A stretch of 40,142 nucleotides of DNA from Truepera sp. (GTDB taxonomy: Bacteria > Deinococcota > Deinococci > Deinococcales > Trueperaceae), in contig JAGXSJ010000152.1 of assembly GCA_018333895.1 (NCBI GenBank), positions 1 to 40,142 on the forward strand, given 5' to 3'. The translations under genes and the position numbers were made by a program. Below, piece by piece: positions 2,519 to 33,464 of the stretch (positions within the stretch are counted from its first letter, which is position 1; each line of letters begins with the position of its first letter). The notes under the pieces are model-generated. The model did not search any database and had not been told where the DNA came from. It saw only the letters and a list, made by a program, of their open reading frames with translations.

Positions 2519-2556
2519 GCGCACCTGGCCAAAGTGTGGTAGGGAGAGTTCTGATG

Positions 2557-2562
2557 TATAAT
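2557..2562 (+). promoter_or_regulatory. -10 box of degV (leaderless)
   Basis: Consensus TATAAT followed by 5 nt and then the ATG at 2568. There is no purine-rich ribosome site in between. Confidence 0.65.
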
Positions 2563-2567
2563 AACTC

Positions 2568-3437
2568 ATGGCTGAGCCTCCCTATTGGGTCGTTACCGAC
2601 GAGGCCTGCGACCTCTGCGACACCATGCCGGTCGAGCCCGTTATGGTGCCGCTCAACCTCTTCTTTGGCAGTCAGGCCTACACCTCGCGCAGCCTTACGC
2701 CGAGCGCCTTCTATCACGAACTGCGCACCAACCCGCACCACCCCACCACCAGCCAGCCTAGCCCGCAGCAGTTTGCTGCCATCTACCAGAGGTTGAGGAG
2801 CCGGCCTATCATCAGCATCCACGTCACTGGCGCGCTGTCGGGGACGGTGGCCTCGGCGCGGCTGGGAAGCGATCTGGTGCCGAAGGCTGAAGTCCACCTG
2901 CTCGATAGCAAGACCGTCTCCATTGGCCAAGCCTTTCAGGTATACGTGGCCTGCCGGGCGGCGCAGCTCGGTCACAGCCTGGACATTGCGCTTGATTGGG
3001 TCGGCAAGACCCGGCGCCAGACGCGCCAGTTCATCACCCTGGGCACGCTCGACTACCTGCGGCGCGGCGGGCGCGTCGGCAAAGTGCAGGCGCTAGTCGG
3101 TTCACTGTTGTCGATCAAGCCAATCCTTGAGATCGATAGAGAGTTGGGCGTGTTCAAGGCCATCAGTCGGGCTCGCGGCTTTGCCCAGGCCTTGCAGGCG
3201 ATGGTCGCGGAGATGCTGCGCAGCGTGCCGGCCGGCACGCCGTTGCGCATTGCTCTCGGCTATGGCGAAGACCCTGCTGATGCCGATGCGCTGCTGGCGC
3301 TGATCCGCAAGCACTACCCCATTCATTGGCTGGGCCGGGCCCAGGCTACGCCGGTCCTGGCGGTACACTCCGGCCCGCAGGTGGCTGGCGTGGCTTTTGC
3401 GCCGCACGGTTGGCCGTGGGAGACAGTATCGGGATGA
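2568..3437 (+). CDS. DegV family fatty-acid-binding protein
   Basis: The 289-residue protein has the DegV hallmarks in order: a start YWVVTDEACDLC, the strand MVPLNLFFG, the SQPSPQQF segment, the SIHVTGALSGTVASA nucleophile-like loop, LLDSKTVSIGQ, and the C-terminal TLDYLRRGGRVGK followed by LLSIKPILEI. DegV/FakB proteins bind a fatty acid between two alpha/beta lobes and can present it to a FakA-type kinase. No FakA is visible here. The start is the ATG 5 nt after a TATAAT box; a longer overlapping reading frame from 2536 is in another phase and was dismissed. The gene is monocistronic and convergent with the VWA gene. Confidence 0.92.
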   Translation: MAEPPYWVVTDEACDLCDTMPVEPVMVPLNLFFGSQAYTSRSLTPSAFYHELRTNPHHPTTSQPSPQQFAAIYQRLRSRPIISIHVTGALSGTVASARLGSDLVPKAEVHLLDSKTVSIGQAFQVYVACRAAQLGHSLDIALDWVGKTRRQTRQFITLGTLDYLRRGGRVGKVQALVGSLLSIKPILEIDRELGVFKAISRARGFAQALQAMVAEMLRSVPAGTPLRIALGYGEDPADADALLALIRKHYPIHWLGRAQATPVLAVHSGPQVAGVAFAPHGWPWETVSG

Positions 3438-3518
3438 GTCACAGCGGTTTTCACAAATACTGAGTTGGCTCAGCGCCGGTATCATCTCTGCCAAGACGCC
3501 CTGGACAACGATTCGCAG

Positions 3519-3538
3519 TCCTGCGAGCACCCGCAGGA
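3519..3538. terminator. Possible hairpin between convergent genes
   Basis: A 7-bp perfect stem (TCCTGCG / CGCAGGA) with a 6-nt loop in the gap between the convergent degV and VWA genes. There is no clear T tract on either side, so termination is only suggested by position. Confidence 0.3.
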
Positions 3539-3560
3539 TCAAACCAGATGATACCTGCTA

Positions 3561-4796
3561 TCAGTTCACCAGCTTGGTCCGCCGCGACTGAAAGTCCATC
3601 AGCACGTAGCGCCCGATGGTGTGCGGGGTGGTGAAGTAAGCTTTGCCACGAGTCATGTGCGAGACGCGCTGCACAAAAGCGATCAGCTCCGGGTCGCGGG
3701 CCAGCATAAAGGTGTTGATCTGGATTCCTTGGCGGCGGCAGTTACCGACCTCGCGCAAGGTCTCACCTAAGACCAGCGGGTCGAGACCGTAGGCGTTCTT
3801 GTAGATTCGCCCGCCCGGCAGGGTGATAGCTGACGGTTTGCCGTCGGTGATCATTACAATCTGCTTCATATCCTTGCTCTGGCGCTTCAAGAGCTTTTGC
3901 GCCAGCCGCAAGCCCTCGGCGGTGTTGGTGTGATAGGGGCCGACTTGGGCGGTGGCCAGCTTTGCCAGCGGGATCTCCTCAGCGGAGTTGTGAAACAGCG
4001 CAAACTGGATGCTGTCGCCCCGGTACTGGGTGCGGATCAGGTGGGCCAGCGCTAGCGCTACCTGCTTGGCCGGGGTGAAGCGGTCCTCGCCGTAGAGGAT
4101 CATCGAGTGGCTGCAATCGAGCAGCACCACGGTCGCCGCTGAGGAGTAGTACTCGGACTGCACCACCATCAGATCGTCGTGCTCGAGCTTTAGCTGGCCA
4201 CCTTCGAAGCCGTGCTTAGCCGCGCTTAAGAGCGTGGCGCTGATGTCGAGGTTGAGGGTGTCGCCAAACTCATAGGGCTTGGGAGCCGCCGAGGTTTCGA
4301 CGCCGGTGGTTTCAAAGCGGGTGTCATGAGCGCCGAAGCTTGCCTTGCCCGCCGCGCCCAACACCTCCTTGAGGGTGCGGTAGCCCAAAAAGTCGATGGC
4401 CTTATCGGTCAGCTCGAACCTGACCTGACCCGGCTCGCCCTGCCCAACACCGCCCTGGCCCGGCTGCTCGGGATCGCCAGCCTCGGGGCGCAGATAGCCT
4501 TCCTGCTCGAGCCGCCGCGCTAGCTCCTTAACCGCCTGGCCAAGCTTGGAGTCGAGCCAGTGCTCGGCCTCCATGGCCTGATTAAGCGTCTCCTGGTCGA
4601 TTAAATCGTTCTGAATCAGAGCCTCGGCGATGGCTTCATAGAGGTCTTGCAGGGTCGGTTGATGGTTAGGGTCGGGGTCCCAGGGGTTGCGGCCAAAGCC
4701 TGACTCGAGCAGGCGTTGCTGGAGCAGTTTCATCAGCTCGGCTGCATCGAGGTCGTCCAGGGTCGGCTCGTACTTGCTGTAGCGGGTGGTAGGCAT
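3561..4796 (-). CDS. VWA-domain protein paired with MoxR-type ATPase
   Basis: The product is 411 residues. About 110 charged N-terminal residues are followed by a Gly/Gln-rich linker ([12 protein letters not shown]), a middle region and a C-terminal von Willebrand factor A domain with the MIDAS motif DCSHS at residues 227-231. A Thr and Asp further on (MITDGKP) complete the metal site. The layout resembles the ChlD/CoxE class, in which the VWA subunit couples an AAA+ ring to a client. Its ATG is 1 bp after the stop of the MoxR-type gene, so translation is almost certainly coupled. Client and pathway are unknown. The Mg-chelatase label often used for such proteins is a fold assignment, not evidence of chlorophyll synthesis. 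Confidence 0.85.
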
Positions 4797-9351: not shown

Positions 9352-9400
9352 AATCCCCCGGCCTGCGGCCTCCCCCCTTACCAAGCGGGGTTGGGGGGAT
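9352..9400. repeat. Dispersed GC-rich inverted repeat (copy 1)
   Basis: The element begins AATCCCCCGGCCTG and ends GGGGTTGGGGGGATT, so the outer arms AATCCCCC and GGGGGATT pair. Its first 29 bp (9352-9380) recur at 37227-37255 with one visible mismatch. It sits exactly between two divergent leaderless promoters. Confidence 0.6.
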
Positions 9401-9418
9401 TTGCCCAGCCCAAGGCGG

Positions 9419-16284: not shown

Positions 16285-16625
16285 TCAGGGTGACACCATT
16301 AGTAGGGTGCGCTCGCGCACCGCTGCTCTGAGACCCTTCGCGAAGCCTGTCCTGAGTGAACCTGCGAGTATCCGCAGGTCGAAGGGCTCAGGGTGACACC
16401 ATTAGGGTGCGCTCGCGCACCGCTGCTCTGAGACCCTTCGCGAAGCCTGTCCTGAGTGAACCTGCGAGTATCCGCAGGTCGAAGGGCTCAGGGTGACACC
16501 ATTAGGGTGCGCTCGCGCACCGCTGCTCTGAGACCCTTCGCGAAGCCTGTCCTGAGTGAACCTGCGAGTATCCGCAGGTCGAAGGGCTCAGGGTGCCACC
16601 ATTAGGGTGCGCTCGCGCACCGCTG
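16285..16625. repeat. 100-bp tandem repeat array (three full units)
   Basis: Units 16321-16420 and 16421-16520 are identical, and 16521-16620 differs by one base (A to C at about 16596). A partial unit precedes at about 16285-16320 with a 3-bp insertion, and 5 bp of a further unit follow. Each unit holds nested inverted repeats: CCTGAG/CTCAGG outside, CCTGCG/CGCAGG inside, and a separate GGTGCGCTCGCGCACC palindrome. The array lies between the divergent glycan operons. Confidence 0.95.
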
Positions 16626-16677
16626 AGCGTTTTATCATTCTGAGCGCAGTGACATTCGCAGTGTCATTTACGGCTAC

Positions 16678-16707
16678 TTGCTTACCGTTCGCCAGAGGTG
16701 CTACCCT
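16678..16707 (+). promoter_or_regulatory. Possible promoter of wzm-wzt
   Basis: TTGCTT (16678-16683) and TACCCT (16702-16707), spaced 18 bp, about 40 nt before the wzm ATG and just after the tandem repeats. The match is moderate. Confidence 0.3.
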
Positions 16708-16747
16708 GTCCCCGGCGGGGAGCTACGCGCCAAGAGAGCTGGAAGGT

Positions 16748-17521
16748 ATGCAGATCAGCAAAACAACCAGGCAACAGCTCGACCTGTTGTGGCTGCTAGT
16801 AACCAAAGAGGTCACCTTCAGATACAAGCGCACCTTCCTGGGGTTTTTGTGGACGCTGCTGAATCCGCTCCTCACGGCGCTGGTGTTCTTTGTGGCCTTT
16901 ACCATATTCATGCGGTTTGAAATTGAAGACTTCGCCTTTTTTCTGCTGGCGGCTCTTTTTCCCTGGAGCTGGTTTGCCGGCTCGGTTACTGTTGCCACCG
17001 GGACTCTCACCGGCAATGTCTCGCTGATCCGCAAGGTGGTCTTTCCCAAACATCTGCTAATTTTGTCGGTGGTTATTGCCCAGATGGTCAACTTCGCCTT
17101 CACCCTGCCGGTTCTGCTGGGCCTGGCCTTCTTCTACGACCTTCCTCCCAGCCTTAACTGGCTAATCGGCATCCCCATACTGGCTACCGTGCAGTTTGCC
17201 ATTATCTACGGCCTGGGCCTGATGGTCTCAGTGGCCAATGTTTACTTCCGCGACCTCGAGTACATGGTGACGGTGGTGATTAGCCTGCTGTTCTGGATGA
17301 CCCCCATCATCTACCCGCTGAGTGCAGTGCCCGAGGGGGCGCGGCCCTTCTTGACCCTGAACCCCGTCAGCTATCCCATCCAGGCCTGGCGCGACCTGTT
17401 CATGCACAACACCCTCAACTGGCCCTATATTGGAATTGGCCTGGTTACCGCAGTGGTGGTGCTGCTGCTAGGGCACTGGCTCTTCCGGCGGATGTCCGGC
17501 AGGCTGGACGAGGTGCTCTGA
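16748..17521 (+). CDS. ABC-2 type polysaccharide export permease (Wzm-like)
   Basis: The 257-residue protein has six membrane helices and the Wzm/TagG pattern: an amphipathic N-terminus LLWLLVTKEVTFRYKRTFLG, the WTLLNPLLTALVFFVAFTIF helix, and the FWMTPIIYPLSAVPEG loop near the end. It forms the channel that flips lipid-linked glycan across the membrane, with the Wzt ATPase as partner. ATG 16748 begins at the conserved family start (MQISKTTRQQLDLL). GGAAGG lies only 1-2 nt upstream, so initiation context is weak. The frame extends left to 16556, but only through repeat sequence. The stop overlaps the wzt start by one base (TGATG). Confidence 0.92.
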   Translation: MQISKTTRQQLDLLWLLVTKEVTFRYKRTFLGFLWTLLNPLLTALVFFVAFTIFMRFEIEDFAFFLLAALFPWSWFAGSVTVATGTLTGNVSLIRKVVFPKHLLILSVVIAQMVNFAFTLPVLLGLAFFYDLPPSLNWLIGIPILATVQFAIIYGLGLMVSVANVYFRDLEYMVTVVISLLFWMTPIIYPLSAVPEGARPFLTLNPVSYPIQAWRDLFMHNTLNWPYIGIGLVTAVVVLLLGHWLFRRMSGRLDEVL

Positions 17522-18318
17522 TGGCTCGCCCTGAGCTTGTCGAAGTGCCCTGCCCTGAGCTTGTCGAAGGGGCTAGCCCGGCTACGGTTATTGCGGCAGA
17601 AAACCTGTGGAAGAGTTTTCCGTTACAGCGCGACCGGCCCGGCCTGAAGGAGCTGCTGGTCAACGCCCCCAGGTTTTTCAACGGCCGGACCAAGGGGTTC
17701 TGGGCACTTCGGGGTGTGAGCTTTACGGTCAACAAAGGCGAAAGCCTGGGGATTATCGGCAGGAACGGGGCCGGCAAGAGCACCCTGCTCTCGCTGCTCT
17801 TAGGCGTGGCCCTGCCCACCAAGGGCAGGCTTGAGGTACGCGGTAACAGAACCCCCCTGCTCGAGCTGGGCGCAGGCTTCCACCCCGACCTGACCGGCAT
17901 CGAGAATATCTATATCAATGGGGTGATGCTGGGCCTGACCCGGGCCGAGGTGCGGGCCAGGCTAGACGAGATCATCGCCTTTTCGGAGCTGGCCGAGTTT
18001 GTCCACCTGCCCCTGCGAACCTACTCCAGCGGTATGCAGATGCGGCTGGCCTTTGCGGTGGCCATCCACACCTCGCCGGAGGTATTGCTAGTAGACGAGA
18101 TTCTGGCAGTAGGCGACGAGTCGTTTCAACGCAAGTCGGGCAAGGCCCTGACCGATCTGATCGGCGGCGGGGTGACCACGGTGTTTGTCTCGCACAGCAT
18201 GGAGGCCATCAAAAAGCTCTGCCACCGGGCCATCTGGCTCGAACAGGGCGAAGTCCGGGCCGAAGGGGAAGCTGGACAGGTTGTCGAAGAGTACTTAAAA
18301 GCCCAAGGGCAGGCTTGA
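17521..18318 (+). CDS. ABC transporter ATPase for polysaccharide export (Wzt-like, no C-terminal glycan-binding domain)
   Basis: The 265-residue ATPase has Walker A GRNGAGKSTLL, the family-specific LELGAGFHPDLTGIENIY, the signature YSSGMQMRLAFAVA, Walker B VLLVDEILAVGD and the switch His in VFVSHSM. It ends VVEEYLKAQGQA, without the extra carbohydrate-binding domain of O8/O9-type Wzt. It powers glycan export with Wzm, to which it is translationally coupled. The N-terminus is odd: residues 3-16 (RPELVEVPCPELVEG) are two copies of the dispersed repeat CCTGAGCTTGTCGAAG read in frame, and the normal protein probably begins near AENLWKSF. Two decayed copies of its 3' end lie downstream at 19129 and 20080. 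Confidence 0.93.
   Translation: MARPELVEVPCPELVEGASPATVIAAENLWKSFPLQRDRPGLKELLVNAPRFFNGRTKGFWALRGVSFTVNKGESLGIIGRNGAGKSTLLSLLLGVALPTKGRLEVRGNRTPLLELGAGFHPDLTGIENIYINGVMLGLTRAEVRARLDEIIAFSELAEFVHLPLRTYSSGMQMRLAFAVAIHTSPEVLLVDEILAVGDESFQRKSGKALTDLIGGGVTTVFVSHSMEAIKKLCHRAIWLEQGEVRAEGEAGQVVEEYLKAQGQA
17529..17569. repeat. Two copies of a dispersed 16-bp repeat inside the wzt 5' end
   Basis: CCTGAGCTTGTCGAAG occurs twice, in frame, encoding PELVE. A variant (reverse complement, CCTGAGCTTTGCCGAAGG) is inserted in the MNT gene at 27648-27671, and related CCTGAG.../CGAAGGG segments form the 100-bp array at 16321. Confidence 0.8.
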
Positions 18319-18564
18319 ATAAAAAGGGTAGGCCAATTACGACCCTAAGAAGGCTGTGGGATGAGAGGAAGGTTGCGTGAAGCGGCCGACGACGCGATCC
18401 CGGTAAGCGTGCTAGCGGGAAACTCCGATAGCGAAGTTGCTTCGCGGAGCCTGGGCTGAGGGACGAAGTGTTCGCAACGACAATTGCCCTGTGCCCCTGG
18501 ACTAGCTCAGGCGCTAAAGTCAGGACAAGCGCAAAGGGCCAGCAGCGAGCCCGAAGCAGCATGC
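18319..18564. other. Intergenic region with a stem-loop
   Basis: About 245 bp after wzt. I find no convincing gene. A bulged hairpin lies at 18423-18449 (CTCC...GCGAAG / CTTCGC GGAG around TTG). No T tract follows it, so terminator or small RNA status cannot be decided. The right end carries the promoter of the next TA module. Confidence 0.35.
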
Positions 18565-18570
18565 TACACT
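18565..18570 (+). promoter_or_regulatory. -10 box of the DUF2281/MazF-like module
   Basis: TACACT with 8 nt (AGAGGCCA) to the ATG at 18579. The AGAGG could also act as a very short-leader ribosome site. Confidence 0.45.
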
Positions 18571-18578
18571 AGAGGCCA

Positions 18579-18785
18579 ATGAGCACGAGCACCGCAGTAA
18601 GGATCTATCAGCGAGTGCGCCGCCTGTCCGAGCCGCTCGCCCAAGAGGTTATGGATTTTGTCGAGTATCTCGAGTTCAAACACAACTTGCGCGATCTGAA
18701 CACCGAACACCTGAGAGCTACCCAGGAGCCGGTGATGCAAGCGATCTGGGACAATCCCGAAGACGAGCTTTGGAATGACGCTTAA
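18579..18785 (+). CDS. DUF2281-like antitoxin
   Basis: The 68-residue acidic protein contains the DUF2281 core LSEPLAQEVMDFVEYLEFKH, typical of small antitoxins that precede PIN or MazF-type toxins. The C-terminal tail (QAIWDNPEDELWNDA) is the acidic segment that usually wraps the toxin. Its stop overlaps the start of the MazF-like gene by 11 bp, the usual coupling of an antitoxin-toxin operon. The antitoxin would neutralise the downstream ribonuclease and autoregulate the operon; this is inferred from the family. Confidence 0.75.
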   Translation: MSTSTAVRIYQRVRRLSEPLAQEVMDFVEYLEFKHNLRDLNTEHLRATQEPVMQAIWDNPEDELWNDA

Positions 18786-19080
18786 GCCGGGAGAGATAGT
18801 CGCCATACCGTTCCCTTACACGGATCTGCGTGCAACGAAACAGCGTCCCGTACTAGTCTTAACGCCCGAAGACGCCCGTGGCGACTTCATCTCCTTAGCT
18901 ATCACCTCTGTTCCAACAGCTGAACTAACAGTCAAAATCGAGCAAAGCGAGATGGCAAGCGGCCAACTCCCCAAAACCAGCTGGATTCGGTGCAACAAGG
19001 TCTTTACCCTAAGCACCGCCACCACCAGGAAAACATATGGGTTGGAATCTTGTGGTAAAGTTTCGCAGTGTGATGGCTAG
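18775..19080 (+). CDS. MazF/PemK-like mRNA interferase, C-terminus probably frameshifted
   Basis: The 101-residue product begins LKPGEIVAIPFPYTDLRATKQRPVLVL, the MazF/PemK fold with its conserved RPVLVL strand, and continues to SWIRCNKVFTLSTATTRKTYG. The last 14 residues (LESCGKVSQCDG...) no longer look like the family. In the next frame the text continues VVKFRSVMARAESL, which resembles the closing MazF helix. A single-base deletion near 19035 is therefore plausible, leaving a shortened toxin. If active, MazF-type enzymes cut mRNA at short motifs. It is coupled to the DUF2281-like antitoxin and followed within 50 bp by a remnant of the wzt 3' end. Confidence 0.72.
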   Translation: MTLKPGEIVAIPFPYTDLRATKQRPVLVLTPEDARGDFISLAITSVPTAELTVKIEQSEMASGQLPKTSWIRCNKVFTLSTATTRKTYGLESCGKVSQCDG

Positions 19081-19128
19081 GGCCGAGTCATTGTCTCGTA
19101 ACCCTACGGCTGTCAGGCATTTGGACGA

Positions 19129-19188
19129 TGGGGCGAGATACGGGCAGAAGGCGAAGCGGGGTGGGTGGTGGAGGAGTACCTATTTTAG
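19129..19188 (+). pseudogene. Remnant 1 of the wzt 3' end
   Basis: Read from 19129 the sequence gives WGEIRAEGEAGWVVEEYLF and stop. The intact wzt end reads QGEVRAEGEAGQVVEEYLKAQGQA. About 19 codons are recognisable, in the same orientation, directly after the MazF-like gene. It is either the tail of a former wzt paralogue or a homology tract left by recombination. Confidence 0.8.
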
Positions 19189-19212
19189 GGGTATCTCCCT
19201 TTTTTCTGCCTG

Positions 19213-19241
19213 TTGACGTTTGGGGGGGGGTGGTCTATGCT
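19213..19241 (+). promoter_or_regulatory. Promoter with G9 tract in its spacer, driving a MNT/HEPN operon
   Basis: TTGACG (19213-19218) and TATGCT (19236-19241) are separated by exactly 17 bp, and the spacer contains nine consecutive G (19222-19230). The downstream leader carries AAGGAGG 7 nt before the ATG at 19313. Slippage in the G run would change the spacer length and therefore promoter strength. Confidence 0.7.
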
Positions 19242-19312
19242 CTGTTTCGAGGCGGCCTTCTGGTGAGGCTACCTGAGTAGTTACAAATCGCTTTGCGTAA
19301 GGAGGCGGGGTA

Positions 19313-19660
19313 ATGAGCCGACCAATGGTTGATGATGGCCATGGGGCGCAAAATAGCATTGTGCTTGCCCGGTGCCGGGAGGCATTAAAAAAAAGTGCTC
19401 CCGAGGCGACCGTTATTCTTTATGGTTCCCGGGCGAGGGGGGATGCGAAGCCGGATTCTGATTATGACCTGTTAATTTTGCTGGATGGAAAGGTAAATTG
19501 GCTGCTGGAAGACCGGATACGGCAAAGCCTGTATCCGCTAGAGATGGAAACAGGAGCGGTTTTGACCGTTACCTGTTATAGCAAAGAAGAGTGGTACTCG
19601 CCTACCTATCAAGCCATGCCTTTCGTACGGAACGTAGAGCAAGAGGGCATTGCTTTATGA
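19313..19660 (+). CDS. MNT-domain nucleotidyltransferase (antitoxin-type)
   Basis: The 115-residue protein has the minimal nucleotidyltransferase signature YGSRARGDAKPDSDYDLLILLDG, with GSRARG plus the two catalytic Asp of SDYDLL. Such MNT proteins pair with HEPN proteins; in characterised type VII systems the MNT modifies the HEPN toxin with AMP. ATG 19313 has a clear AAGGAGG site. The stop overlaps the HEPN start (ATGA), so the two are coupled. Codon choice and AT content differ visibly from the GC-rich core genes nearby, suggesting recent acquisition. The promoter contains a G9 run. Confidence 0.87.
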   Translation: MSRPMVDDGHGAQNSIVLARCREALKKSAPEATVILYGSRARGDAKPDSDYDLLILLDGKVNWLLEDRIRQSLYPLEMETGAVLTVTCYSKEEWYSPTYQAMPFVRNVEQEGIAL

Positions 19661-20058
19661 ACGCGGAAATAAGCAAATTGGTTGATCATCGACTGGATCG
19701 GGCTAATGAATCAATTCGCGAAGCCGATCTCCTTTTAGAGGCAGGTTATGCCAATGCCGGTGTCAATCGTCTCTTCTATGCATGTTTTTATGCTGTATCA
19801 GCCCTTTTATTGACAAAGGGGCATTCCTCTCCAAAGCATAGTGGTGTCAGAGCCCTTTTTCATCAAAAAATAGTGAAACCTGGCCTGGTTGAAGTAGCTA
19901 TGGGACATTTATACGATAGGCTGTTTGACAGCCGTCAAAAATCGGATTATGTTGATCTGGTGAAATTTGACTTAGCGGATGTAAAGCCGTGGGTAGCGGA
20001 AGTTAAAGCGTTTGTCGGCAAGATTGAGGGCTTGATCACAGTGGAAAGACAAGCCTAA
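19657..20058 (+). CDS. HEPN-domain protein (toxin-type partner of MNT)
   Basis: The product is 133 residues and helical, with the HEPN core YANAGVNRLFYACFYAVSALLL followed by KHSGVRALFHQKIVKPG, the conserved Arg/His region of this subfamily. HEPN proteins in such pairs are RNases held inactive by the MNT partner. Start ATG 19657 overlaps the MNT stop by 4 bp. A longer reading frame from 19591 was rejected because it would overlap the MNT gene by 70 bp. It is AT-rich compared with core genes. About 20 bp after its stop begins a second remnant of the wzt 3' end. Confidence 0.85.
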   Translation: MNAEISKLVDHRLDRANESIREADLLLEAGYANAGVNRLFYACFYAVSALLLTKGHSSPKHSGVRALFHQKIVKPGLVEVAMGHLYDRLFDSRQKSDYVDLVKFDLADVKPWVAEVKAFVGKIEGLITVERQA

Positions 20059-20079
20059 GCATGAAAGCATGGATCAATC

Positions 20080-20178
20080 TGCGACCGGGCAAGCTGGCTC
20101 GAGCACGGCGAGATCCGCACGGAAGGCGAAGCGGGGTAGGTTGTAGAAGAGTATTTGAAAGCACAGGGGAAGGTTTGA
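20080..20178 (+). pseudogene. Remnant 2 of the wzt 3' end
   Basis: From 20080 the frame reads CDRASWLEHGEIRTEGEAG, stop (TAG), then VVEEYLKAQGKV and the natural TGA. The intact gene reads CHRAIWLEQGEVRAEGEAGQVVEEYLKA; the TAG corresponds to a Gln (CAG) codon. About 32 codons of clear homology lie between the MNT/HEPN operon and the methyltransferase-glycosyltransferase gene. Confidence 0.88.
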
Positions 20179-20188
20179 GGTGGCAGCG

Positions 20189-23101
20189 ATGGAAGATGTG
20201 GTAAGACATGTAAGAAGAACGGGTATGTCCGCACTGGTTTCCAAAAGTATGCTGTTAGAGGCGGACTTGCTTGACAGTGGGGCAGGCCCCTGGGTCGGTC
20301 ACATTCCCTTTGCTTTTTGGATCATAGAACAGCTCCGGCCGCGCATTTTAGTTGAACTTGGCACTTATTACGGCCAGTCCTATTTCAGTTTATGCCAAAG
20401 CGTGCGCGCCAATGGGCTTTCCACCAAATGCTATGCAGTTGATACCTGGCAGGGCGACGAACACGGAGGGTTCTACGGCGAGGAGGTGTTTGCCCATGTC
20501 GAAGCGCGCAACCAGCGCGAGTATCACGCTTTCTCACGGCTCCTGAGGATGCGTTTTGACGATGCGCTTTCGTCCTTCAGCGATGGCACTATTGACCTTT
20601 TGCACATTGATGGCCTGCACACTTATGAGGCGGTGCGGCATGACTTTGAAAGCTGGCTGCCAAAGCTTTCTTCGCGCGGCGTGGTCCTGTTTCACGACAT
20701 TAACGTCCGTGAGCGCGACTTTGGCGTCTGGCGGCTGTGGGAGGAGCTGTCAACGAGTTATCCGCACATCGAGTTTGAGCACTCTCATGGCCTCGGGGTG
20801 TTATTTGTTGGCAAACTTCAACCGCCCGGCATCATAGGGTTGTTAGAGGAATGGTCCGCCCCTGAAGGTAGCTACCTCATAAAGAATCTCTTCGCAAAAT
20901 TTGGACATCTGGTGAGTCTTGAGTATCAGACCAACGATCACAACCAAGGCATAGCCAAGCGCGACAGCCAGCTTGCCCATCTCAACCAGGCAGTAGCCGA
21001 GTACCAAGAGCAGCTCACCACCATTAGCCACACCCTGGCCGAGCGGGAGGAGCAGGTTATCTCGCTCAACCAGGGCATAGCCGAGCGCGACAGCCAGCTG
21101 GCCAGCCTCACCCAGGCAGTAACCGAGCATCAAGAGCAGCTCACCACCATTAGCCACACCCTGGCCGAGCGGGAGGAGCAGATCGTCGCGCTCAATCAAG
21201 GCATAGCGGAAAGGGACGGGCAGCTCAGCCAGTTGCGCGAACAAGAAGCCCAGCTGCAAGAACAAGCCAAGGTGCTGCTGGCTTCAGCGCAGGAAGCGGG
21301 CGCGCTAATCGCCAGCCTTAGTCAGACGATCGACGAGCGGGAGGAGCAGGTTATCTCGCTCAACCAGGGCATAGCCGAGCGGGACAGCCAGCTCGCGACC
21401 ACTAGCCAAACCCTTGCCGAGCGGGACGTGCAAATCGCCACGATTCTTAGTTCGACAACTTGGCGGCTAACCGGACCCCTGCGGGTGGTTGCCGATCAGC
21501 TCAAGCGGATACGGCGTTGGTTACGGTTCTCGGTACGCAAAGTTTTATTCGCTCCAAAACGGTTTGATGCGGAGTGGTATCTAAAGCAGAATCCAGATGT
21601 TGCGATGAGCGGTATGGATCCCTATAAGCACTACATACTTTTTGGAAAAGCAGAGGGTCGCAAGCCAGCACCCGATACGTCACTGTTACACGGCAAGAAA
21701 AGTAGTGTATTTCATTTGTTGAGAATCGCACCGCAAATAATTACCCAAAAAGGTGGCATCTGGCGCACCTGTGCGGCGGTACTGCGTGTATATCGTCGCG
21801 AAGGCTTTGCCGGCATCAAGGTGCGAGCTTTTGGGGGTCCCTCACTGTTACCCGCCAGAGGGCCTCTCCAGAGTCCTATGTGGTTCTTCGACATTGTGAA
21901 TGACACCGCGATTCGTCAGAGTTTTTGGACATTGCAACACGTTATCGCTTTGCACGCGAAGAACCACGGCGAGATAACGCACCTGATAGCATTACCATTT
22001 TTCTCCGCAGGTGGCGCCCAACAGACAGCCACGAATTTTGCGTGTGCTGTTGCGCGTACAGGCGGGAGCGTCCTGATGCTCGCTGTCGATCGGAAACTGC
22101 CTGTCAGCACAGCTGTGACACCTGCCGGGAAAGTGCTCGCCATTGACCTTGAAGAGTACTTTCCTGGCACAGATATGGAGGTTCGCGAAGCCCTTCTCAT
22201 GGCCATGATTAGAATGGTTGCCCCAAGAGTGCTTCACATCATAAATTCGGAGGTGGGCTGGCGCCTTGTAATCAAATTTGGGAACCGCATTAGGCAAGTG
22301 TGCAGAGTGTTCGGTTCCATATTTGCGTTTCAGTACGACTCGAAAACTGGCGCAAAGATCGGCTATGCAGAAACCTTCCTTCGTGACGCACTTCCCTTTT
22401 TGGATGGGTTGCTCACGGATAATAAGCGGTTCGCAATTGATGCCATCGCGGATTACGGATTGGAGGCCGAGAAGGCAAAGTTTCATGTAATATATAACCC
22501 TTGTCGTTTTGACAGCGCAGAGATTGCGTCTGAGCGCCTGAGAACCCTCGCGGCCTCTATTGCGGACGCGCAACGTTTGCAGATCGTTTGGGCAGGACGG
22601 CTGGACGCAGAAAAGCGCCCCGACCTACTTTTCGAAGTGGCGCGTCTGTGTCCTCAGATGGATTTCCATGTGTTTGGCGCAACCATAGTTGACTCGTCTC
22701 TGAGCCTCGGTGCGCCTCCAGCAAACTTGCAGCTTCGCGGGCCATTCTCCTCGCCCCTAGACGTTATTCGCGACTCGAACTACCACGCTTATATGTTCAC
22801 CTCTCGCTGGGAGGGTATGCCCAACACTGTCATCGAGTTCGGGGCCGCCGGATATCCCGTCATTGCTGCAACGGTTGGTGGAATTTCGGAACTGATAGAC
22901 GAGTCCACCGGCTATCCACTTCCTGCCAGAGCAAGTGCTGCTGACTACGCTCGCTCTCTGGAAGCTGTCCGTATGGAGCCCGATATTGCTGCACAACGCG
23001 CAGCGGCGCTTGTGCGGAGAATTGCGGAAATCCACAGTCAGAACTCGTTTTACTGCACGCTCAAAAACGTTCCCAGCTATCTCATTCCCCCAAAAGGCTA
23101 A
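20189..23101 (+). CDS. Methyltransferase - coiled coil - GT4 glycosyltransferase fusion
   Basis: The product is about 970 residues with four parts. (1) Residues 1-230 form a class I SAM methyltransferase (ILVELGTYYGQSYF motif I; DLLHIDGLHTYEAVRHDF; VVLFHDI). (2) About 250-420 form a coiled coil of 42-residue repeats (NQGIAERDSQL, HTLAEREEQ). (3) A linker at about 425-500 has WRLTGPLR and WYLKQNPDVAMSGMDPYKHY. (4) About 590-970 form a GT-B/GT4 transferase with WAGRLDAEKRPDLLFEVA and NTVIEFGAAGYPVIAATVGG. It may both methylate and extend a glycan, with the coiled coil as a ruler or scaffold; this is inference. ATG 20189 (GAGG upstream) is preferred over GTG 20180. It begins immediately after a wzt remnant. 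Confidence 0.88.
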   Translation: MEDVVRHVRRTGMSALVSKSMLLEADLLDSGAGPWVGHIPFAFWIIEQLRPRILVELGTYYGQSYFSLCQSVRANGLSTKCYAVDTWQGDEHGGFYGEEVFAHVEARNQREYHAFSRLLRMRFDDALSSFSDGTIDLLHIDGLHTYEAVRHDFESWLPKLSSRGVVLFHDINVRERDFGVWRLWEELSTSYPHIEFEHSHGLGVLFVGKLQPPGIIGLLEEWSAPEGSYLIKNLFAKFGHLVSLEYQTNDHNQGIAKRDSQLAHLNQAVAEYQEQLTTISHTLAEREEQVISLNQGIAERDSQLASLTQAVTEHQEQLTTISHTLAEREEQIVALNQGIAERDGQLSQLREQEAQLQEQAKVLLASAQEAGALIASLSQTIDEREEQVISLNQGIAERDSQLATTSQTLAERDVQIATILSSTTWRLTGPLRVVADQLKRIRRWLRFSVRKVLFAPKRFDAEWYLKQNPDVAMSGMDPYKHYILFGKAEGRKPAPDTSLLHGKKSSVFHLLRIAPQIITQKGGIWRTCAAVLRVYRREGFAGIKVRAFGGPSLLPARGPLQSPMWFFDIVNDTAIRQSFWTLQHVIALHAKNHGEITHLIALPFFSAGGAQQTATNFACAVARTGGSVLMLAVDRKLPVSTAVTPAGKVLAIDLEEYFPGTDMEVREALLMAMIRMVAPRVLHIINSEVGWRLVIKFGNRIRQVCRVFGSIFAFQYDSKTGAKIGYAETFLRDALPFLDGLLTDNKRFAIDAIADYGLEAEKAKFHVIYNPCRFDSAEIASERLRTLAASIADAQRLQIVWAGRLDAEKRPDLLFEVARLCPQMDFHVFGATIVDSSLSLGAPPANLQLRGPFSSPLDVIRDSNYHAYMFTSRWEGMPNTVIEFGAAGYPVIAATVGGISELIDESTGYPLPARASAADYARSLEAVRMEPDIAAQRAAALVRRIAEIHSQNSFYCTLKNVPSYLIPPKG
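20941..21440 (+). repeat. 126-bp in-frame tandem repeats encoding the coiled coil
   Basis: Starts of the repeated CAACCAGGGCATAGCC segment fall at 20941, 21067 and 21193 (period 126 bp, 42 residues). A further copy at 21361 is offset by 168 bp. Long stretches are nearly identical, so the coiled-coil length is likely to vary by recombination or slippage. Confidence 0.85.
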
Positions 23102-26980: not shown

Positions 26981-27406
26981 TCACCCTTCCCCTCCCGCGC
27001 GGCTCAGCCAACCCTCAGCCGCCTTCAAAATGACCTCGGCCTGGGCCAAAGCAGCCCCGGCCTCGCCCTGGGTATAGACCTCGGCAGGGGTGAGCTCGGC
27101 CAGGGCATCGGGATAGCGGGTGGGGATGTAGAGCTTATCCAGGGCCAAAGCCGCCTCCAGTAAGGAGGCGAAGCGTTCTTTGGCCCCCTCGGGCATCTCC
27201 CGCACCAGCCGCCCCAGCGAGGGCCCCCAGGGGTCGGCGTCCTGGAGCAGCCAGACGGCCTTCAGGGCTTTCTCTCCGGCTTGCTGGGCAAAAAAAGCGG
27301 CCTGGGCGTACTTGCCAGCGGCCACCAAGGCCCGAGCCGCCTCGAGGTCATCCCAGGCCTGACGAAGCCAGCGCCAGGCCTCACGCCGCTGTTTCTCCAC
27401 GCTCAT
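26981..27406 (-). CDS. HEPN-domain protein lacking histidine
   Basis: The 141-residue protein has the HEPN core AGKYAQAAFFAQQAGEKALKAVW and the later YIPTRYPD motif seen in this subfamily. It contains no His at all: the place where relatives usually have GHSL reads WGPSLGRL. The RX4-6H RNase motif is therefore absent, and the protein may be catalytically inactive or act by another route. It overlaps the upstream MNT gene by 26 bp and is coupled to it. It is GC-rich, unlike the MNT/HEPN pair at 19313. Confidence 0.85.
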   Translation of the reverse strand: MSVEKQRREAWRWLRQAWDDLEAARALVAAGKYAQAAFFAQQAGEKALKAVWLLQDADPWGPSLGRLVREMPEGAKERFASLLEAALALDKLYIPTRYPDALAELTPAEVYTQGEAGAALAQAEVILKAAEGWLSRAGGEG

Positions 27407-27716
27407 AAAGGAGCCTGGCCTCCTTCATCACGCCCCGCAAAAAGGGCAGTTCGCGCCGGTCCTGAAACTCCTCGGGGGTAAGAACCACCGGCTCTACCAC
27501 CACCGGCAGATCCCGCAGGGCCCACAGCACCCGACCGATGCGCTCCAAGTGCGGCAGGTCGGTCTCCCAGAGGACGAGGAGGTCCAGATCGGAGCGCCGG
27601 GTGGCCGCTCCCCGGGCGCGGGAGCCGAAGAGGTAGACTTGTCCTGAGCTTTGCCGAAGGGCCCGCCCCACGCCCAGGGTGCTCAAGCGTTCGGTGACGG
27701 TCTCGAGCCAGTCCAC
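27381..27716 (-). CDS. MNT-domain nucleotidyltransferase with in-frame repeat insertion
   Basis: The 111-residue protein has LFGSRARGAATRRSDLDLLVL, the MNT catalytic signature. GTG 27716 is the start: TAAGAT lies 6 nt upstream, fitting a leaderless mRNA, and a nearby ATG is out of frame. Residues about 20-26 (LRQSSGQ) are a translated copy of the dispersed repeat CCTTCGGCAAAGCTCAGG, inserted just before the catalytic strand. The pair partner is the HEPN gene it overlaps. Its first 126 bp, promoter included, are duplicated at 28671-28796. Confidence 0.85.
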   Translation of the reverse strand: MDWLETVTERLSTLGVGRALRQSSGQVYLFGSRARGAATRRSDLDLLVLWETDLPHLERIGRVLWALRDLPVVVEPVVLTPEEFQDRRELPFLRGVMKEARLLYERGETAA

Positions 27717-27722
27717 AGGGAC

Positions 27723-27728
27723 ATCTTA
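27723..27728 (-). promoter_or_regulatory. -10 box of MNT gene (leaderless, GTG start)
   Basis: TAAGAT on the minus strand, 6 nt from the GTG at 27716. The duplicated fragment preserves the same spacing with TAAAAT (28791-28796). Confidence 0.5.
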
Positions 27729-27746
27729 CCCTAACGGCAACCTGCT

Positions 27747-27920
27747 CAGGCTGGGCTCGAGCTTGCCTTCCACCCTCGGCTCGAACCGATCGACAACATC
27801 CCGCCGGCCGAGTTGGAGGTGATGTATGATCAGGCAGGCAAGTCCGGTCGCGGTGGCTGGACTCAGGTAATCTACCCTACGGAAAACCTGGGGCGGTTCG
27901 GCTTTGCCCAAAGGGGGTAG
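27747..27920 (+). pseudogene. C-terminal remnant of an IS3-type transposase
   Basis: In the frame through 27780 the sequence reads FHPRLEPIDNIPPAELEVMY and on to a TAG at 27918. It resembles the C-terminus of IS3-family OrfB (RRLLEPIGNIPPAEFEALYY). The rest of the transposase and both inverted repeats are missing. It lies between two MNT operons facing away from each other, suggesting an insertion sequence once mobilised or disrupted this stretch. Confidence 0.5.
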
Positions 27921-27925
27921 TCCAA

Positions 27926-28345
27926 ATGGATGGCCTAAAAGATGAACGGGAGCGAATTGCAGCCGGGGCTTCTTTGCCTGGGATAAGTGAAGAAGACATG
28001 GTGGTATATAAGGCCACCGCCCGGCAACGGATGGCACAAGATGAAAAAGAGCTGCTAGTAAGGCGGAAAAGGGCTTGGGAAACCGTGCGTTGGGCAGCCA
28101 AATTACTCAAGGAGGAGTTTGGCGCCCATCGGGTGGTGGTCTTTGGGTCCCTTCTTTGTTCAAAATGTTTTAATAAATGGTCCGATGTGGACATCGCTGC
28201 CTGGGGAATTAGCCCCACAGACACCTTCCGGGCCATGGGCGCGGTGATGGATCTGCGCGAGGATATTGAGATCAACCTGGTAGATATCGAGACTTGTCGC
28301 GCTACCCTGCGGGCAATAATCGAGCGTGAAGGGCAAGAGATATGA
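27926..28345 (+). CDS. MntA-like nucleotidyltransferase (antitoxin-type)
   Basis: The 139-residue protein is helical at the N-terminus (residues 1-65), followed by a nucleotidyltransferase domain with VVVFGSLL and WSDVDIAAWG, the GSx10-DxD pattern of MntA-type antitoxins. These AMPylate a HepT toxin in the best studied cases. Here the partner gene overlaps by 4 bp (ATGA) but is truncated, so this antitoxin may be an orphan. It starts 5 bp after the IS3-like remnant. Confidence 0.8.
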   Translation: MDGLKDERERIAAGASLPGISEEDMVVYKATARQRMAQDEKELLVRRKRAWETVRWAAKLLKEEFGAHRVVVFGSLLCSKCFNKWSDVDIAAWGISPTDTFRAMGAVMDLREDIEINLVDIETCRATLRAIIEREGQEI

Positions 28346-28668
28346 TTGAGTGCTATCTGGTAGTAGCTAGTCGTATCCGCCAAGAACTTACCGATCTGGA
28401 GAGGGTTGTAAGCCGGGCCGAGCAGGCCATGGGTTTGGCCCGGAATTCCACGGAGCATGACTTATATCTTGATTCGGTTGCGCTGAACTTGCACGACTTC
28501 TATGGTGGACTGGAACGCATTTTCCGTCACATTGCGACGGGTGTGGACCAGAGCCTGCCAGGCGGACCGGAGTGGCACCGTGCGCACAGAACTGCTACTC
28601 TTCGCTTATTTTTTGGAACAGGTGTAACGGGAAAAATAAAAACAAAGCGACGCACGCAATTATCTTAA
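28342..28668 (+). pseudogene. HepT-like HEPN toxin, C-terminally truncated
   Basis: Residues 1-85 match the HepT-like HEPN family (LYLDSVALNLHDFYGGLERIF, then GVDQSLPGGPEWHRA). Family members continue for about 60 residues to a C-terminal helix with the catalytic R-x4-H-type motif. Here the frame changes to unrelated TLRLFFGTGVTGKIKTKRRT and stops. The break abuts the duplicated MNT fragment that begins at 28671, so the deletion and the duplication look like one rearrangement. The remaining protein should lack RNase activity. Confidence 0.78.
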
Positions 28669-28784
28669 CTGGCCGCTCCCCGGGCGCGGGAGCCGAAGAG
28701 GTAGACTTGTCCTGAGCTTTGCCGAAGGGCCCGCCCCACGCCCAGGGTGCTCAAGCGTTCCGTTATGGTCTTTGGCCAGTCCAC
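28665..28784 (-). pseudogene. Duplicated 5' end of the MNT gene
   Basis: From GTG 28784 the frame encodes 39 residues, VDWPKTITERLSTLGVG and on to YLFGSRARGAAS, then TAA. Bases 28671-28796 align without gaps to 27603-27728. The first 90 positions are identical; nine differences fall in the last 37 bp, around the start codon and promoter. The catalytic Asp residues are lost. The fragment's TAAAAT box overlaps the stop codon of rfbC. Confidence 0.9.
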
Positions 28785-28793
28785 AGGAGCATT

Positions 28794-29372
28794 TTACACT
28801 TGGGCCGAGGGGGCCGCTCCTTCGTAGCGCGGCAGCCGCTCCGCCGGGAGCTCTTTGAGCCTGGGGTAGCTCCGGTCTTTGGCTGACAGCAGAGGGTTGC
28901 CGCTAGGCCAGGCGATAGCGAGGTCGGGATCATCCCAGGCGATGCCGGCTTCAGCCTGGGGATTATAAAAATCGGTACACTTGTAGGCGAACAGGGCGCT
29001 CTCGCTGGTGACGCAAAAACCGTGAGCAAACCCTTCGGGAATATAGAGCTGGCGCTTGTTGTCAGCTGACAGGGTGACCCCCACCCACCGGCCAAAGGTC
29101 GGCGAGCCGCCCCGGATGTCCACCGCCACATCGAACACCTCGCCCTGCAAAACGAAGACCAGCTTCCCTTGGCCATGAGGATGCTGAAAGTGCAGGCCGC
29201 GCAAAGTGCCTTTCCTCGAAAAAGAGAGGTTGTCCTGGACGAATAGGGTGGGCAGGCCGGCAGCGGCGTAGCGCTGTTGGTGCCAGGTTTCCAGGAAGAA
29301 GCCGCGGTCATCGCTAAACACTGAGGGCTCGAGCAAGAGCACCTCCGGCAGCTCGGTCGGTCTTACTTTCAT
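28794..29372 (-). CDS. rfbC: dTDP-4-dehydrorhamnose 3,5-epimerase
   Basis: The 192-residue cupin protein has [13 protein letters not shown], the catalytic His in [11 protein letters not shown], and [10 protein letters not shown]. It epimerises dTDP-4-keto-6-deoxyglucose at C3 and C5, the third step of dTDP-L-rhamnose synthesis. The tail after residue 170 ([19 protein letters not shown]) is the normal end. It overlaps rfbA by 4 bp at its start, so the order rfbB-rfbA-rfbC is one operon. A 29-bp piece of this gene recurs at 33436-33464. No rfbD reductase gene is in the window. Confidence 0.95.
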
Positions 29373-31517: not shown

Positions 31518-31711
31518 GTACCGCACTTTACCAGAACCTGGACGGCAAGGGGAGTGGCTGTCTTTGGCGGGTGGGTTGCGAGTGGCTCACCGAGCGCCTC
31601 GCCGGATATTTCATGCAACCTTGCCAACAGCGCCTCTCTAGCCCAATAAAAGGCCTTCACAGAACCTGATGATCGCATCTGCCGCATAAGGTACGTCATT
31701 TCCAAAATCAA
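31514..31711 (-). CDS. Small frame of unknown status between HEPN and HicB genes
   Basis: The frame of up to 65 codons (TTG 31711 or ATG 31699) overlaps both neighbours by 4 bp (HEPN stop and HicB start), as operon genes do. The product has a helical stretch, GSVKAFYWAREALLARLHEI, and then a Pro/Thr/Val-rich tail. It does not match HicA. It could be a real toxin partner or chance. Confidence 0.3.
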   Translation of the reverse strand: MILEMTYLMRQMRSSGSVKAFYWAREALLARLHEISGEALGEPLATHPPKTATPLAVQVLVKCGT

Positions 31712-32130
31712 TTTCCCTCTTCGCTTATGACCTTTTCAATAGTTGCGATTATCCACTTTGTATTTTCTATGGCTTCTGCCGCATCTGCTTGGTCATACAA
31801 CTCCGCAGCCGGTATCCCTTCAATGGAACCGTAAAAGGCAGGCTCCCGGTCAAAGGCCAAAGAATCGCTGATATAAGCGATCCGGTCTAAAACTTCACGG
31901 TCAAAAAGAGCAAACTTCGCCAGCTCCTTCCTGATAACCCGCCCCAGGATATGGGATTTTGGATACTCAATGCCGAAACTTTTAAAGAGCCCTTTGACCG
32001 CAAGTTCCACCGCCTCCTGACACTTCCGCATGACCCGGTGATAATGAGCATGCTGCAGGGACAGGGAGGCTTCATCGAGGATGATCGCCGCGTCTTTAAT
32101 AAAGGCCCTTGCCCGGTCTTTATTGGTCAT
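31708..32130 (-). CDS. HEPN-domain protein (toxin-type)
   Basis: The 140-residue protein has the HEPN core AHYHRVMRKCQEAVELAVKGLF and then SFGIEYPKSHILGRVI, where the conserved His is present. It is the likely RNase partner of the MNT protein encoded just upstream, with which it overlaps by 4 bp (ATGA). Base composition is lower in GC than the flanking rfb and sixA genes. A histidine at the usual place distinguishes it from the His-free HEPN protein at 26981. Confidence 0.82.
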   Translation of the reverse strand: MTNKDRARAFIKDAAIILDEASLSLQHAHYHRVMRKCQEAVELAVKGLFKSFGIEYPKSHILGRVIRKELAKFALFDREVLDRIAYISDSLAFDREPAFYGSIEGIPAAELYDQADAAEAIENTKWIIATIEKVISEEGN

Positions 32131-32636
32131 AGCTCGATAACCTCGTCGGATTTCAGGTCGGGCTTTAACACCCAGTAATGTCCGTGGGCGGTCTCCTTCC
32201 TGACGGAGCCAAGCCTTACCATGGCCTTCCTGACCTTGTTTAGCTCCTGCTTGAGAAAGTCATCGCGATCAAACAGTATCTTCCCTTCCTGTGCTATCTC
32301 AATCAAGAGCGGCGGGTGCCGCATTACTTCATCAACCGTGGAGATCAGAAAGGAGGGTTCAAGGTTGAGCGCAAACCCCTCCAGTCGTTCGTATTCCTCG
32401 CTTTCCCTGATGCTGGCCAACAACGGCATGAGCTCTTTCACCCTTTTGGGGTAGGTCTGGTAGGCTTCTTTCAGCACTACCAAGAAATCTATGTCGCTTC
32501 CTTTTCTCAGCTGTCCCCTGGCCGCCGAACCAAAAAGGCAGACCGAAACCAGTTTATCTTGATACCCGTCTTTCAGAATTTCCGCCACCTGCGCAGAAAA
32601 CTCTGAAACGGCTTCGGCGAGCGTTAGAGTGGCCAT
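32127..32636 (-). CDS. MNT-type nucleotidyltransferase, long form
   Basis: The 169-residue protein has VCLFGSAARGQLRKGSDIDFLVVL, the nucleotidyltransferase signature, followed by a longer C-terminal region (residues 90-169) with LNKVRKAMVRLGSVRKETAH. It is longer than the ~110-residue MNT proteins elsewhere in the window, so it belongs to a different subfamily. ATG 32636 has GGAGG 8 nt upstream. It is coupled to the downstream HEPN gene. Confidence 0.85.
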   Translation of the reverse strand: MATLTLAEAVSEFSAQVAEILKDGYQDKLVSVCLFGSAARGQLRKGSDIDFLVVLKEAYQTYPKRVKELMPLLASIRESEEYERLEGFALNLEPSFLISTVDEVMRHPPLLIEIAQEGKILFDRDDFLKQELNKVRKAMVRLGSVRKETAHGHYWVLKPDLKSDEVIEL

Positions 32637-32922: not shown

Positions 32923-32956
32923 GTTCCCCGGCAGGCAATGGTTAAGCCTTCCCCTC
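32923..32956. repeat. 34-bp direct repeat, copy 1
   Basis: Identical over 34 bp to 33400-33433. It begins GTTCCCCGGCAGGCAATGG and ends GCCTTCCCCTC. The two copies bracket the AbrB/PIN' module; the palindrome GGTGCGCAAGCGCACC (32900-32915) precedes copy 1 only. Confidence 0.9.
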
Positions 32957-33037: not shown

Positions 33038-33286
33038 ATGAAGACCACCCTTACTTCAAAGGGCCAACTTACCCTTCCCAAGGTAGTGCGGGAGGCTTTG
33101 GGCCTGAGGGCCGGAGACGAGCTGGTGGTTCGCTTAGAGGAGGGCCGCATTGTGCTTTTGCCCCACCACCGCTACCGGGCTCGAGACCTGCTCGAGCTCA
33201 TCCCCGAAGCCAAAGTGCGCTACCCGGGCCTTGACGAAGAGCAGCAAGCCCTGGTCCGGGCCCTGGCGGAGAAAGAGCCCCAGTGA
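33038..33286 (+). CDS. AbrB/SpoVT-type antitoxin
   Basis: The 82-residue protein begins MKTTLTSKGQLTLPKVVREA, the swapped-hairpin AbrB fold, with GLRAGDELVVRLEEGRIVLL. Such proteins act as DNA-binding antitoxins for PIN-domain RNases. AAGGAG directly abuts the ATG, an unusually short spacing. The stop overlaps the start of a truncated PIN gene (GTGA). It is flanked by 34-bp direct repeats, suggesting a cassette. Confidence 0.87.
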   Translation: MKTTLTSKGQLTLPKVVREALGLRAGDELVVRLEEGRIVLLPHHRYRARDLLELIPEAKVRYPGLDEEQQALVRALAEKEPQ

Positions 33287-33399: not shown

Positions 33400-33433
33400 G
33401 TTCCCCGGCAGGCAATGGTTAAGCCTTCCCCTC
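33400..33433. repeat. 34-bp direct repeat, copy 2
   Basis: Identical to 32923-32956 at a distance of 477 bp. It lies immediately after the truncated PIN frame and 2 bp before a 29-bp fragment of rfbC. Confidence 0.9.
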
Positions 33434-33435
33434 CG

Positions 33436-33464
33436 TCATCCCGGGCGATGCCGGCTTCAGCCTG
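33436..33464 (-). pseudogene. 29-bp fragment of rfbC
   Basis: Bases 33436-33464 match 28930-28958 inside rfbC with one difference and in the same orientation. The encoded peptide QAEAGIARDD corresponds to [10 protein letters not shown] of RfbC. The rest of the 33397-33553 spacer contains no gene that I can identify. Confidence 0.75.

What the first reader, a model, noticed from the sequence alone, without database searches (positions are those of the whole stretch)
18235..20178. Repeated wzt 3' ends mark two TA insertions or exchanges
After the intact wzt (ending VVEEYLKAQGQA) come a DUF2281/MazF module, a 19-codon remnant of the same 3' end (19129-19188), a MNT/HEPN operon, and a 32-codon remnant with an in-frame TAG for Gln (20080-20178). 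Each remnant is in the same orientation and sits directly after a TA module. Either a series of wzt paralogues decayed, each replaced by a TA cassette, or the wzt end serves as a homology tract for repeated cassette exchange. I know of no described system in which an exporter ATPase tail serves as the landing site of TA modules.
Basis: partly seen in the sequence, partly recalled or inferred. Interest (0 to 1): 0.85.

Follow-up and report, generated by a model that had tools for sequence, protein, structure and literature searches.

The report
Sugar-exporter gene tails between toxin-antitoxin modules
In a bacterial surface-sugar gene cluster, leftover ends of several different versions of one exporter gene (wzt) lie between toxin-antitoxin genes, and the same layout recurs in an unrelated bacterium, which suggests that incoming DNA replaced the exporter gene again and again while the toxin-antitoxin pairs stayed behind.

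Summary
The wzt 3' end recurs twice (about 19107/19132-19182 and about 20060-20178), well above chance. The remnants are not decayed local copies. They differ from the resident wzt mainly at third codon positions, and are as far from it (75-78% identity) as from the wzt ends of another phylum, so they are ends of other, once-functional wzt alleles. An independent contig (L012, a Bipolaricaulota MAG) has the same layout: full wzt, MNT/HEPN, 5'-truncated wzt, DUF4258/DUF2283, wzt tail, HicBA. A second duplication in the window (27602-27732 / 28670-28800) flanks another TA module; it is 100% identical next to the insert and diverges beyond, as a homologous crossover would leave it. Best explanation: incoming wzt-TA DNA recombines homologously in wzt and is rejoined illegitimately on the other side, so the resident wzt is displaced, its 3' tail stays, and the older TA is kept. 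This matches the effector-displacement model for Vibrio cholerae T6SS arrays (PMC5361080), here with an exporter ATPase as anchor and TA modules as cargo. I found no report of that pairing. It is rare: 2 of 2 readable close relatives, 0 of 75 more distant loci.

The parts
17521..18318 (+). Intact wzt (O-antigen/polysaccharide ABC exporter ATPase), the anchor gene
   Evidence: ABC_tran E 1.1e-21; best NCBIfam matches are Wzt/RfbE and TagH export ATPases, below cut-off; preceded by an ABC-2 permease at 16556-17521
18579..18785 (+). DUF2281 antitoxin-like gene of the newest TA module
   Evidence: PF10047 E 1.1e-06, over cut-off; weak VapB match
18775..19080 (+). MazF/PemK-like toxin gene, C-terminal end missing from the profile match
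   Evidence: PF02452 E 7.3e-10, profile 1-90 of 109
19132..19182 (+). wzt remnant 1 (GEIRAEGEAGWVVEEYL), tail of a different wzt allele; decayed homology may start near 19107
   Evidence: matrix score 53.1 vs shuffle maximum 16.9; differences by codon position [3,1,9]
19313..19660 (+). MNT nucleotidyltransferase (MntA-like antitoxin) of the older TA module
   Evidence: PF01909 E 5.6e-12; MntA_antitoxin 1.2e-07, below cut-off
19657..20058 (+). HEPN (HepT-like toxin), full-length domain, stop codon 20056-20058
   Evidence: PF05168 E 1.6e-14, profile 3-115 of 117
20060..20178 (+). wzt remnant 2, with one in-frame TAG; strong homology 20078-20178, weaker back to about 20060
   Evidence: differences by codon position [4,1,13]
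20176..20191 (+). TGAGGTGGCAGCGATG: stop of remnant 2, ribosome-site-like GAGGTGG and ATG of the glycosyltransferase gene; shared with L012 copy 2, absent after the intact wzt genes
   Evidence: read from the sequences
20180..23101 (+). Methyltransferase/glycosyltransferase gene, first of the operon that wzt originally preceded (start probably ATG at 20189)
   Evidence: PF13578 E 3.2e-29, PF13692
27381..27716 (-). MNT gene that served as anchor in the second case; its HEPN partner is 26981-27406
   Evidence: PF01909 and PF05168
27602..27732 (-). Left copy of the 131-nt duplication (5' end of the MNT gene)
27926..28668 (+). Inserted MNT-like/HepT-like module; HepT-like ORF matches only profile 2-36 of 110, so probably truncated
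   Evidence: PF18765 (below cut-off) and PF20797
28670..28800 (-). Right copy of the duplication: truncated MNT 5' end next to rfbC; identical to the left copy for 91 nt, then 13 mismatches in 44 nt
   Evidence: p about 1e-7

Best explanation
The array records successive displacement of wzt. A resident wzt followed by the glycosyltransferase operon was hit by incoming DNA carrying a diverged wzt followed by a TA module. One end joined by homologous recombination in wzt (or upstream), the other by illegitimate joining after or inside the TA module, into the 3' part of the resident wzt. Result: new wzt, new TA, truncated old wzt tail, old operon. Repeating this gave wzt, DUF2281/MazF, tail 1, MNT/HEPN, tail 2, glycosyltransferases. 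Shown: the repeats, their order, the allelic character of the tails, variable junctions, recurrence in another phylum, and a crossover footprint in a second case in the window. Inferred: the illegitimate second join, DNA uptake as the route (relatives are inferred to be Deinococcota, many of which are competent), and retention of old TA modules because losing one frees its toxin.
For: Tails differ from the resident wzt mainly at third codon positions ([3,1,9] and [4,1,13]), so they diverged as functional genes; L012 copy 2 vs its intact wzt [16,15,58], p 1.5e-9. Every remnant is 5'-truncated and starts just behind a TA gene or fragment, in the window and in L012, as this model predicts when the donor carries wzt followed by TA. 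Junctions differ in wzt codon and in TA gene. Second case 27602-28800: 91 nt identical next to the insert, all 13 mismatches in the distal 44 nt, the footprint of a crossover between diverged alleles; the inserted HepT-like gene is cut. The RBS-like motif TGAGGTGGCAGCGATG after tail 2 and L012 copy 2 marks the original wzt/next-gene join. The same model was proposed for V. cholerae T6SS arrays (PMC5361080).
Against: No donor or intermediate was found. Only two arrays can be read. The footprint of a homologous step is seen for the MNT gene, not for wzt itself, where divergence is even over the tail. Remnant 1 has also lost its last 8 codons, which needs a further change. Other HEPN modules of the genome have no flanking repeats, so TA capture does not always leave such scars. 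The functional activity of the TA modules is untested and MazF and one HepT-like gene look damaged, which weakens retention by addiction.
Confidence: 0.62

Rival explanations
1. Tandem wzt paralogues (or whole wzm-wzt-sugar clusters from past serotypes) stood side by side and decayed by deletion; TA modules later settled in the dead sequence without any link to wzt recombination.
For: Tails are allelic and diverged, as paralogues would be; the locus is full of TA modules anyway; L012 copy 2 still holds about two thirds of wzt.
Against: All four remnants keep the 3' end and none keeps a 5' end; each begins just behind a TA gene or fragment; no wzm remnant was seen between them; the second case shows the same geometry around a different gene with a crossover footprint.
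Confidence: 0.2
2. Local duplication: insertion of a TA module copies the adjacent wzt end (long target duplication or template switching), and the copy then decays.
For: Direct repeats flank the inserts; 91 nt of the second case are identical.
Against: Decay of a non-coding copy should hit the three codon positions alike; observed [4,1,13], [3,1,9] and [16,15,58]. The tails are as distant from the local gene as from another phylum. In the second case the mismatches are clustered, not spread.
Confidence: 0.05
3. A site-specific mobile element (integrase or integron-like cassette) uses the wzt 3' end as its attachment site, as islands use tRNA or other gene 3' ends, and leaves a duplicated gene end.
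For: Duplicated 3' ends with the upstream gene intact resemble attL/attR of islands in gene 3' ends (general knowledge); ordered addition of TA modules resembles integron arrays.
Against: Junctions fall at different wzt codons; the only genes recognised in the inserts are TA genes; the duplicated ends differ by 20-25%, too much for an attachment core; the second case uses the 5' end of another gene.
Confidence: 0.06

Closest known systems
Vibrio cholerae T6SS effector displacement and orphan immunity arrays (Kirchberger et al. 2017, PMC5361080)
   Same: Incoming pair replaces the resident gene, the old partner is kept and shifted downstream, several alleles accumulate in order; proposed mechanism is homology-facilitated illegitimate recombination with a conserved anchor.
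   Different: The displaced gene is an exporter ATPase, not a toxin; what is kept is a whole TA module, not an immunity gene, so the reason for keeping it would be addiction rather than protection from kin.
Strings of orphan 3' regions in Rhs and CDI loci
   Same: Serial replacement leaves ordered 3' gene fragments in the same orientation (as summarised in PMC5361080).
   Different: There the 3' ends are the variable toxin parts; here the wzt 3' ends are the conserved part and appear to be dead.
Homology-facilitated illegitimate recombination in transformable bacteria
   Same: One end joins by homology, the other illegitimately (PMC3240628 abstract).
   Different: Known from experiments with single events; here inferred from a natural array, with no donor in hand.
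Integron cassette arrays rich in TA cassettes
   Same: Ordered addition of TA modules with the newest nearest the anchor (general knowledge).
   Different: No integrase was recognised in the inserts, junctions vary, and the repeated tract is a coding end of an exporter gene.

Membership tests
Successive displacement array (V. cholerae T6SS type) | One intact leading gene followed by remnants of other alleles of the same gene, same orientation | tested here: met
   window; L012
Successive displacement array (V. cholerae T6SS type) | Multiple alleles come from different strains, not from duplication | tested here: met
   third-position bias and between-phylum level of divergence
Successive displacement array (V. 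cholerae T6SS type) | Related strains show the simpler intermediate forms | tested here: inconclusive
   no close strain differing at the array is held; C154 and C173 are identical there
Homology-facilitated illegitimate recombination | Homologous crossover on one side | tested here: inconclusive
   footprint seen in the MNT case, not resolvable in wzt
Homology-facilitated illegitimate recombination | Junction without homology on the other side | not testable with these tools
   donor sequence unknown; junctions vary in position
MntA/HepT (MNT/HEPN) toxin-antitoxin, type VII | MNT-fold nucleotidyltransferase next to a HEPN protein in one operon | tested here: met
   PF01909 and PF05168 at 19313-20058, overlapping genes; the curated MntA_antitoxin cut-off is not reached (31.5 of 60 bits)
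MntA/HepT (MNT/HEPN) toxin-antitoxin, type VII | Toxicity of HEPN and neutralisation by MNT | not testable with these tools
   needs an expression test in a laboratory strain
Site-specific island in a gene 3' end, or integron array | Linked integrase and constant attachment boundary | tested here: not met
   only TA genes recognised in the inserts; boundary codon varies

The most novel reading that the evidence does not exclude
wzt and TA modules travel together as a unit: a TA module behind the exporter gene penalises loss of the incoming segment and drives replacement of the resident wzt, so the polysaccharide export locus works as a self-ratcheting exchange site across phyla.
Probability: 0.12. 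Interest if true: 0.8.

Novelty: new variant of a known kind. Interest (0 to 1): 0.5.

Why it matters
Displacement arrays are known for secreted toxins and their immunity genes. If the reading holds, the same history can build up behind an ordinary exporter gene with TA modules as the retained cargo. That would give a simple, readable record of past exchanges at a surface-polysaccharide locus and a testable reason why TA modules pile up in such variable loci.

Tried and rejected
Chance similarity (rejected). Local duplication and decay (rejected for wzt by codon positions). Redundant contigs C154 and C173 as independent evidence (rejected: identical over this stretch). TA modules as a general feature downstream of wzt: 28 small ORFs within 1.5 kb downstream of wzt in 75 loci gave no TA family. 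Repeats around other HEPN modules of this genome: none flanking in the five stretches checked. More arrays: none in the other genomes of the window's phylum (111 searched), 400 Chloroflexota (34; without a positive control, so an empty answer there is weak) or 397 Actinomycetota; 248 Elusimicrobiota and 396 Nitrospirota (59) gave wzt genes, and the five loci read of these showed no readable array; 100 genomes of L012's phylum (24) gave only L012 plus two wzt at 49-54%, whose flanks I did not read. Viral contigs and plasmids gave only distant wzt. Higher synonymous conservation of the tail than of the gene body is suggestive only. No paper pairing wzt with TA displacement was found.

Full report
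Observation. The wzt gene at 17521-18318 is intact. Its 3' end recurs at 20078-20178 (101 nt, 79%, E 1.7e-20) and, shorter, at 19132-19182. A 51-column matrix scores 53.1 at the shorter remnant, which was not used to build it, against a maximum of 16.9 in 200 shuffles. Between the copies lie a DUF2281/MazF module and an MNT/HEPN module. Weaker homology takes remnant 2 back to about 20060, directly behind the HEPN stop codon.

What the remnants are. If they were copies of the neighbouring wzt that decayed in place, changes would fall evenly on codon positions. They do not: [3,1,9] for remnant 1 and [4,1,13] for remnant 2. The remnants are 75-78% identical to the resident wzt and 73-84% identical to the wzt ends of an unrelated contig. 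They are best read as ends of other wzt alleles that diverged while functional.

An independent case. The closest wzt in the genome collection (73%) lies on L012, filed under Acetothermia/Bipolaricaulota. There an intact wzt (306-1037) is followed by MNT/HEPN (1222-1939), a wzt copy lacking its first ~100 codons (2104-2603) fused at its left end to a short antitoxin-like ORF (my reading of 13 codons, not tested), a DUF4258/DUF2283 pair (2753-3224; the DUF4258 match is below cut-off), a wzt tail (3262-3399) and HicB/HicA (3556-4028). Copy 2 differs from the intact gene by [16,15,58] over the codon positions, p 1.5e-9. Remnant 2 of the window and L012 copy 2 share TGAGGTGGCAGCGATG after the tail, which neither intact wzt has. 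This looks like the original join of wzt to the next gene, with its ribosome site.

A second case in the window. At 27602-27732 and 28670-28800 the 5' end of a minus-strand MNT gene is duplicated around another MNT/HepT-like module. The copies are identical for the 91 nt next to the insert; all 13 mismatches lie in the distal 44 of 135 nt (p about 1e-7). A homologous crossover between diverged alleles leaves this footprint. The HepT-like gene matches only the first third of its family profile, so the join appears to have cut it.

Strain comparison. Contig C173 is a variant, 92-94% identical to the window over about 1-14 kb. It carries an extra MNT/HEPN module where the window has 9354-9409, next to short dispersed repeats. 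TA content near this locus thus differs between closely related sequences. Over the wzt array the three contigs are identical, so this says nothing about the array itself.

Mechanism. The simplest account is successive displacement: incoming wzt-TA DNA joins homologously on one side and illegitimately on the other, truncating the resident wzt and pushing the older TA module and tail downstream. The newest module is the one next to the intact wzt. This is the model proposed for V. cholerae T6SS arrays (PMC5361080). The footprint of the homologous step is seen only in the MNT case; the illegitimate step is inferred from the varying join positions; uptake by transformation and retention by addiction are inferred from general knowledge.

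Limits. Only two wzt arrays can be read; a third close wzt (71%), in Nitrospirota, runs off its contig 5 nt after its stop. Among more distant wzt loci none shows a repeated tail, and small ORFs just downstream of wzt in 75 of them match no TA family.

Noticed in passing
31708-32636: A further MNT/HEPN pair on the minus strand (PF01909, PF05168); with the others, the 15 kb from wzt onward hold at least five TA-like modules.
   Followed up: partly
32923-32956 and 33400-33433: An exact 34-nt direct repeat flanks a MazE-like antitoxin gene (33038-33286) without an obvious toxin partner; directly behind the right copy lies a 29-nt fragment (33436-33464) 97% identical to part of rfbC at 28930-28958.
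   Followed up: partly
9354-9409: Contig C173 of the same assembly carries an extra MNT/HEPN module here, flanked by partial copies of a CCCCCTTACCAAG-type repeat stub.
   Followed up: partly
16303-16625: Three tandem 100-nt repeats upstream of the wzm-like permease gene; the redundant contigs C154 and C173 differ from the window in this array.
   Followed up: no
2545-3560: A stretch of about 1 kb with a DegV-family gene (2568-3437) is present in the window and absent from the C173 variant.
   Followed up: no
L147 (G1230:C14): The third close wzt (71%, Nitrospirota) lies at the very end of its contig, 5 nt before the break, as would happen if repeated tails broke the assembly.
   Followed up: no
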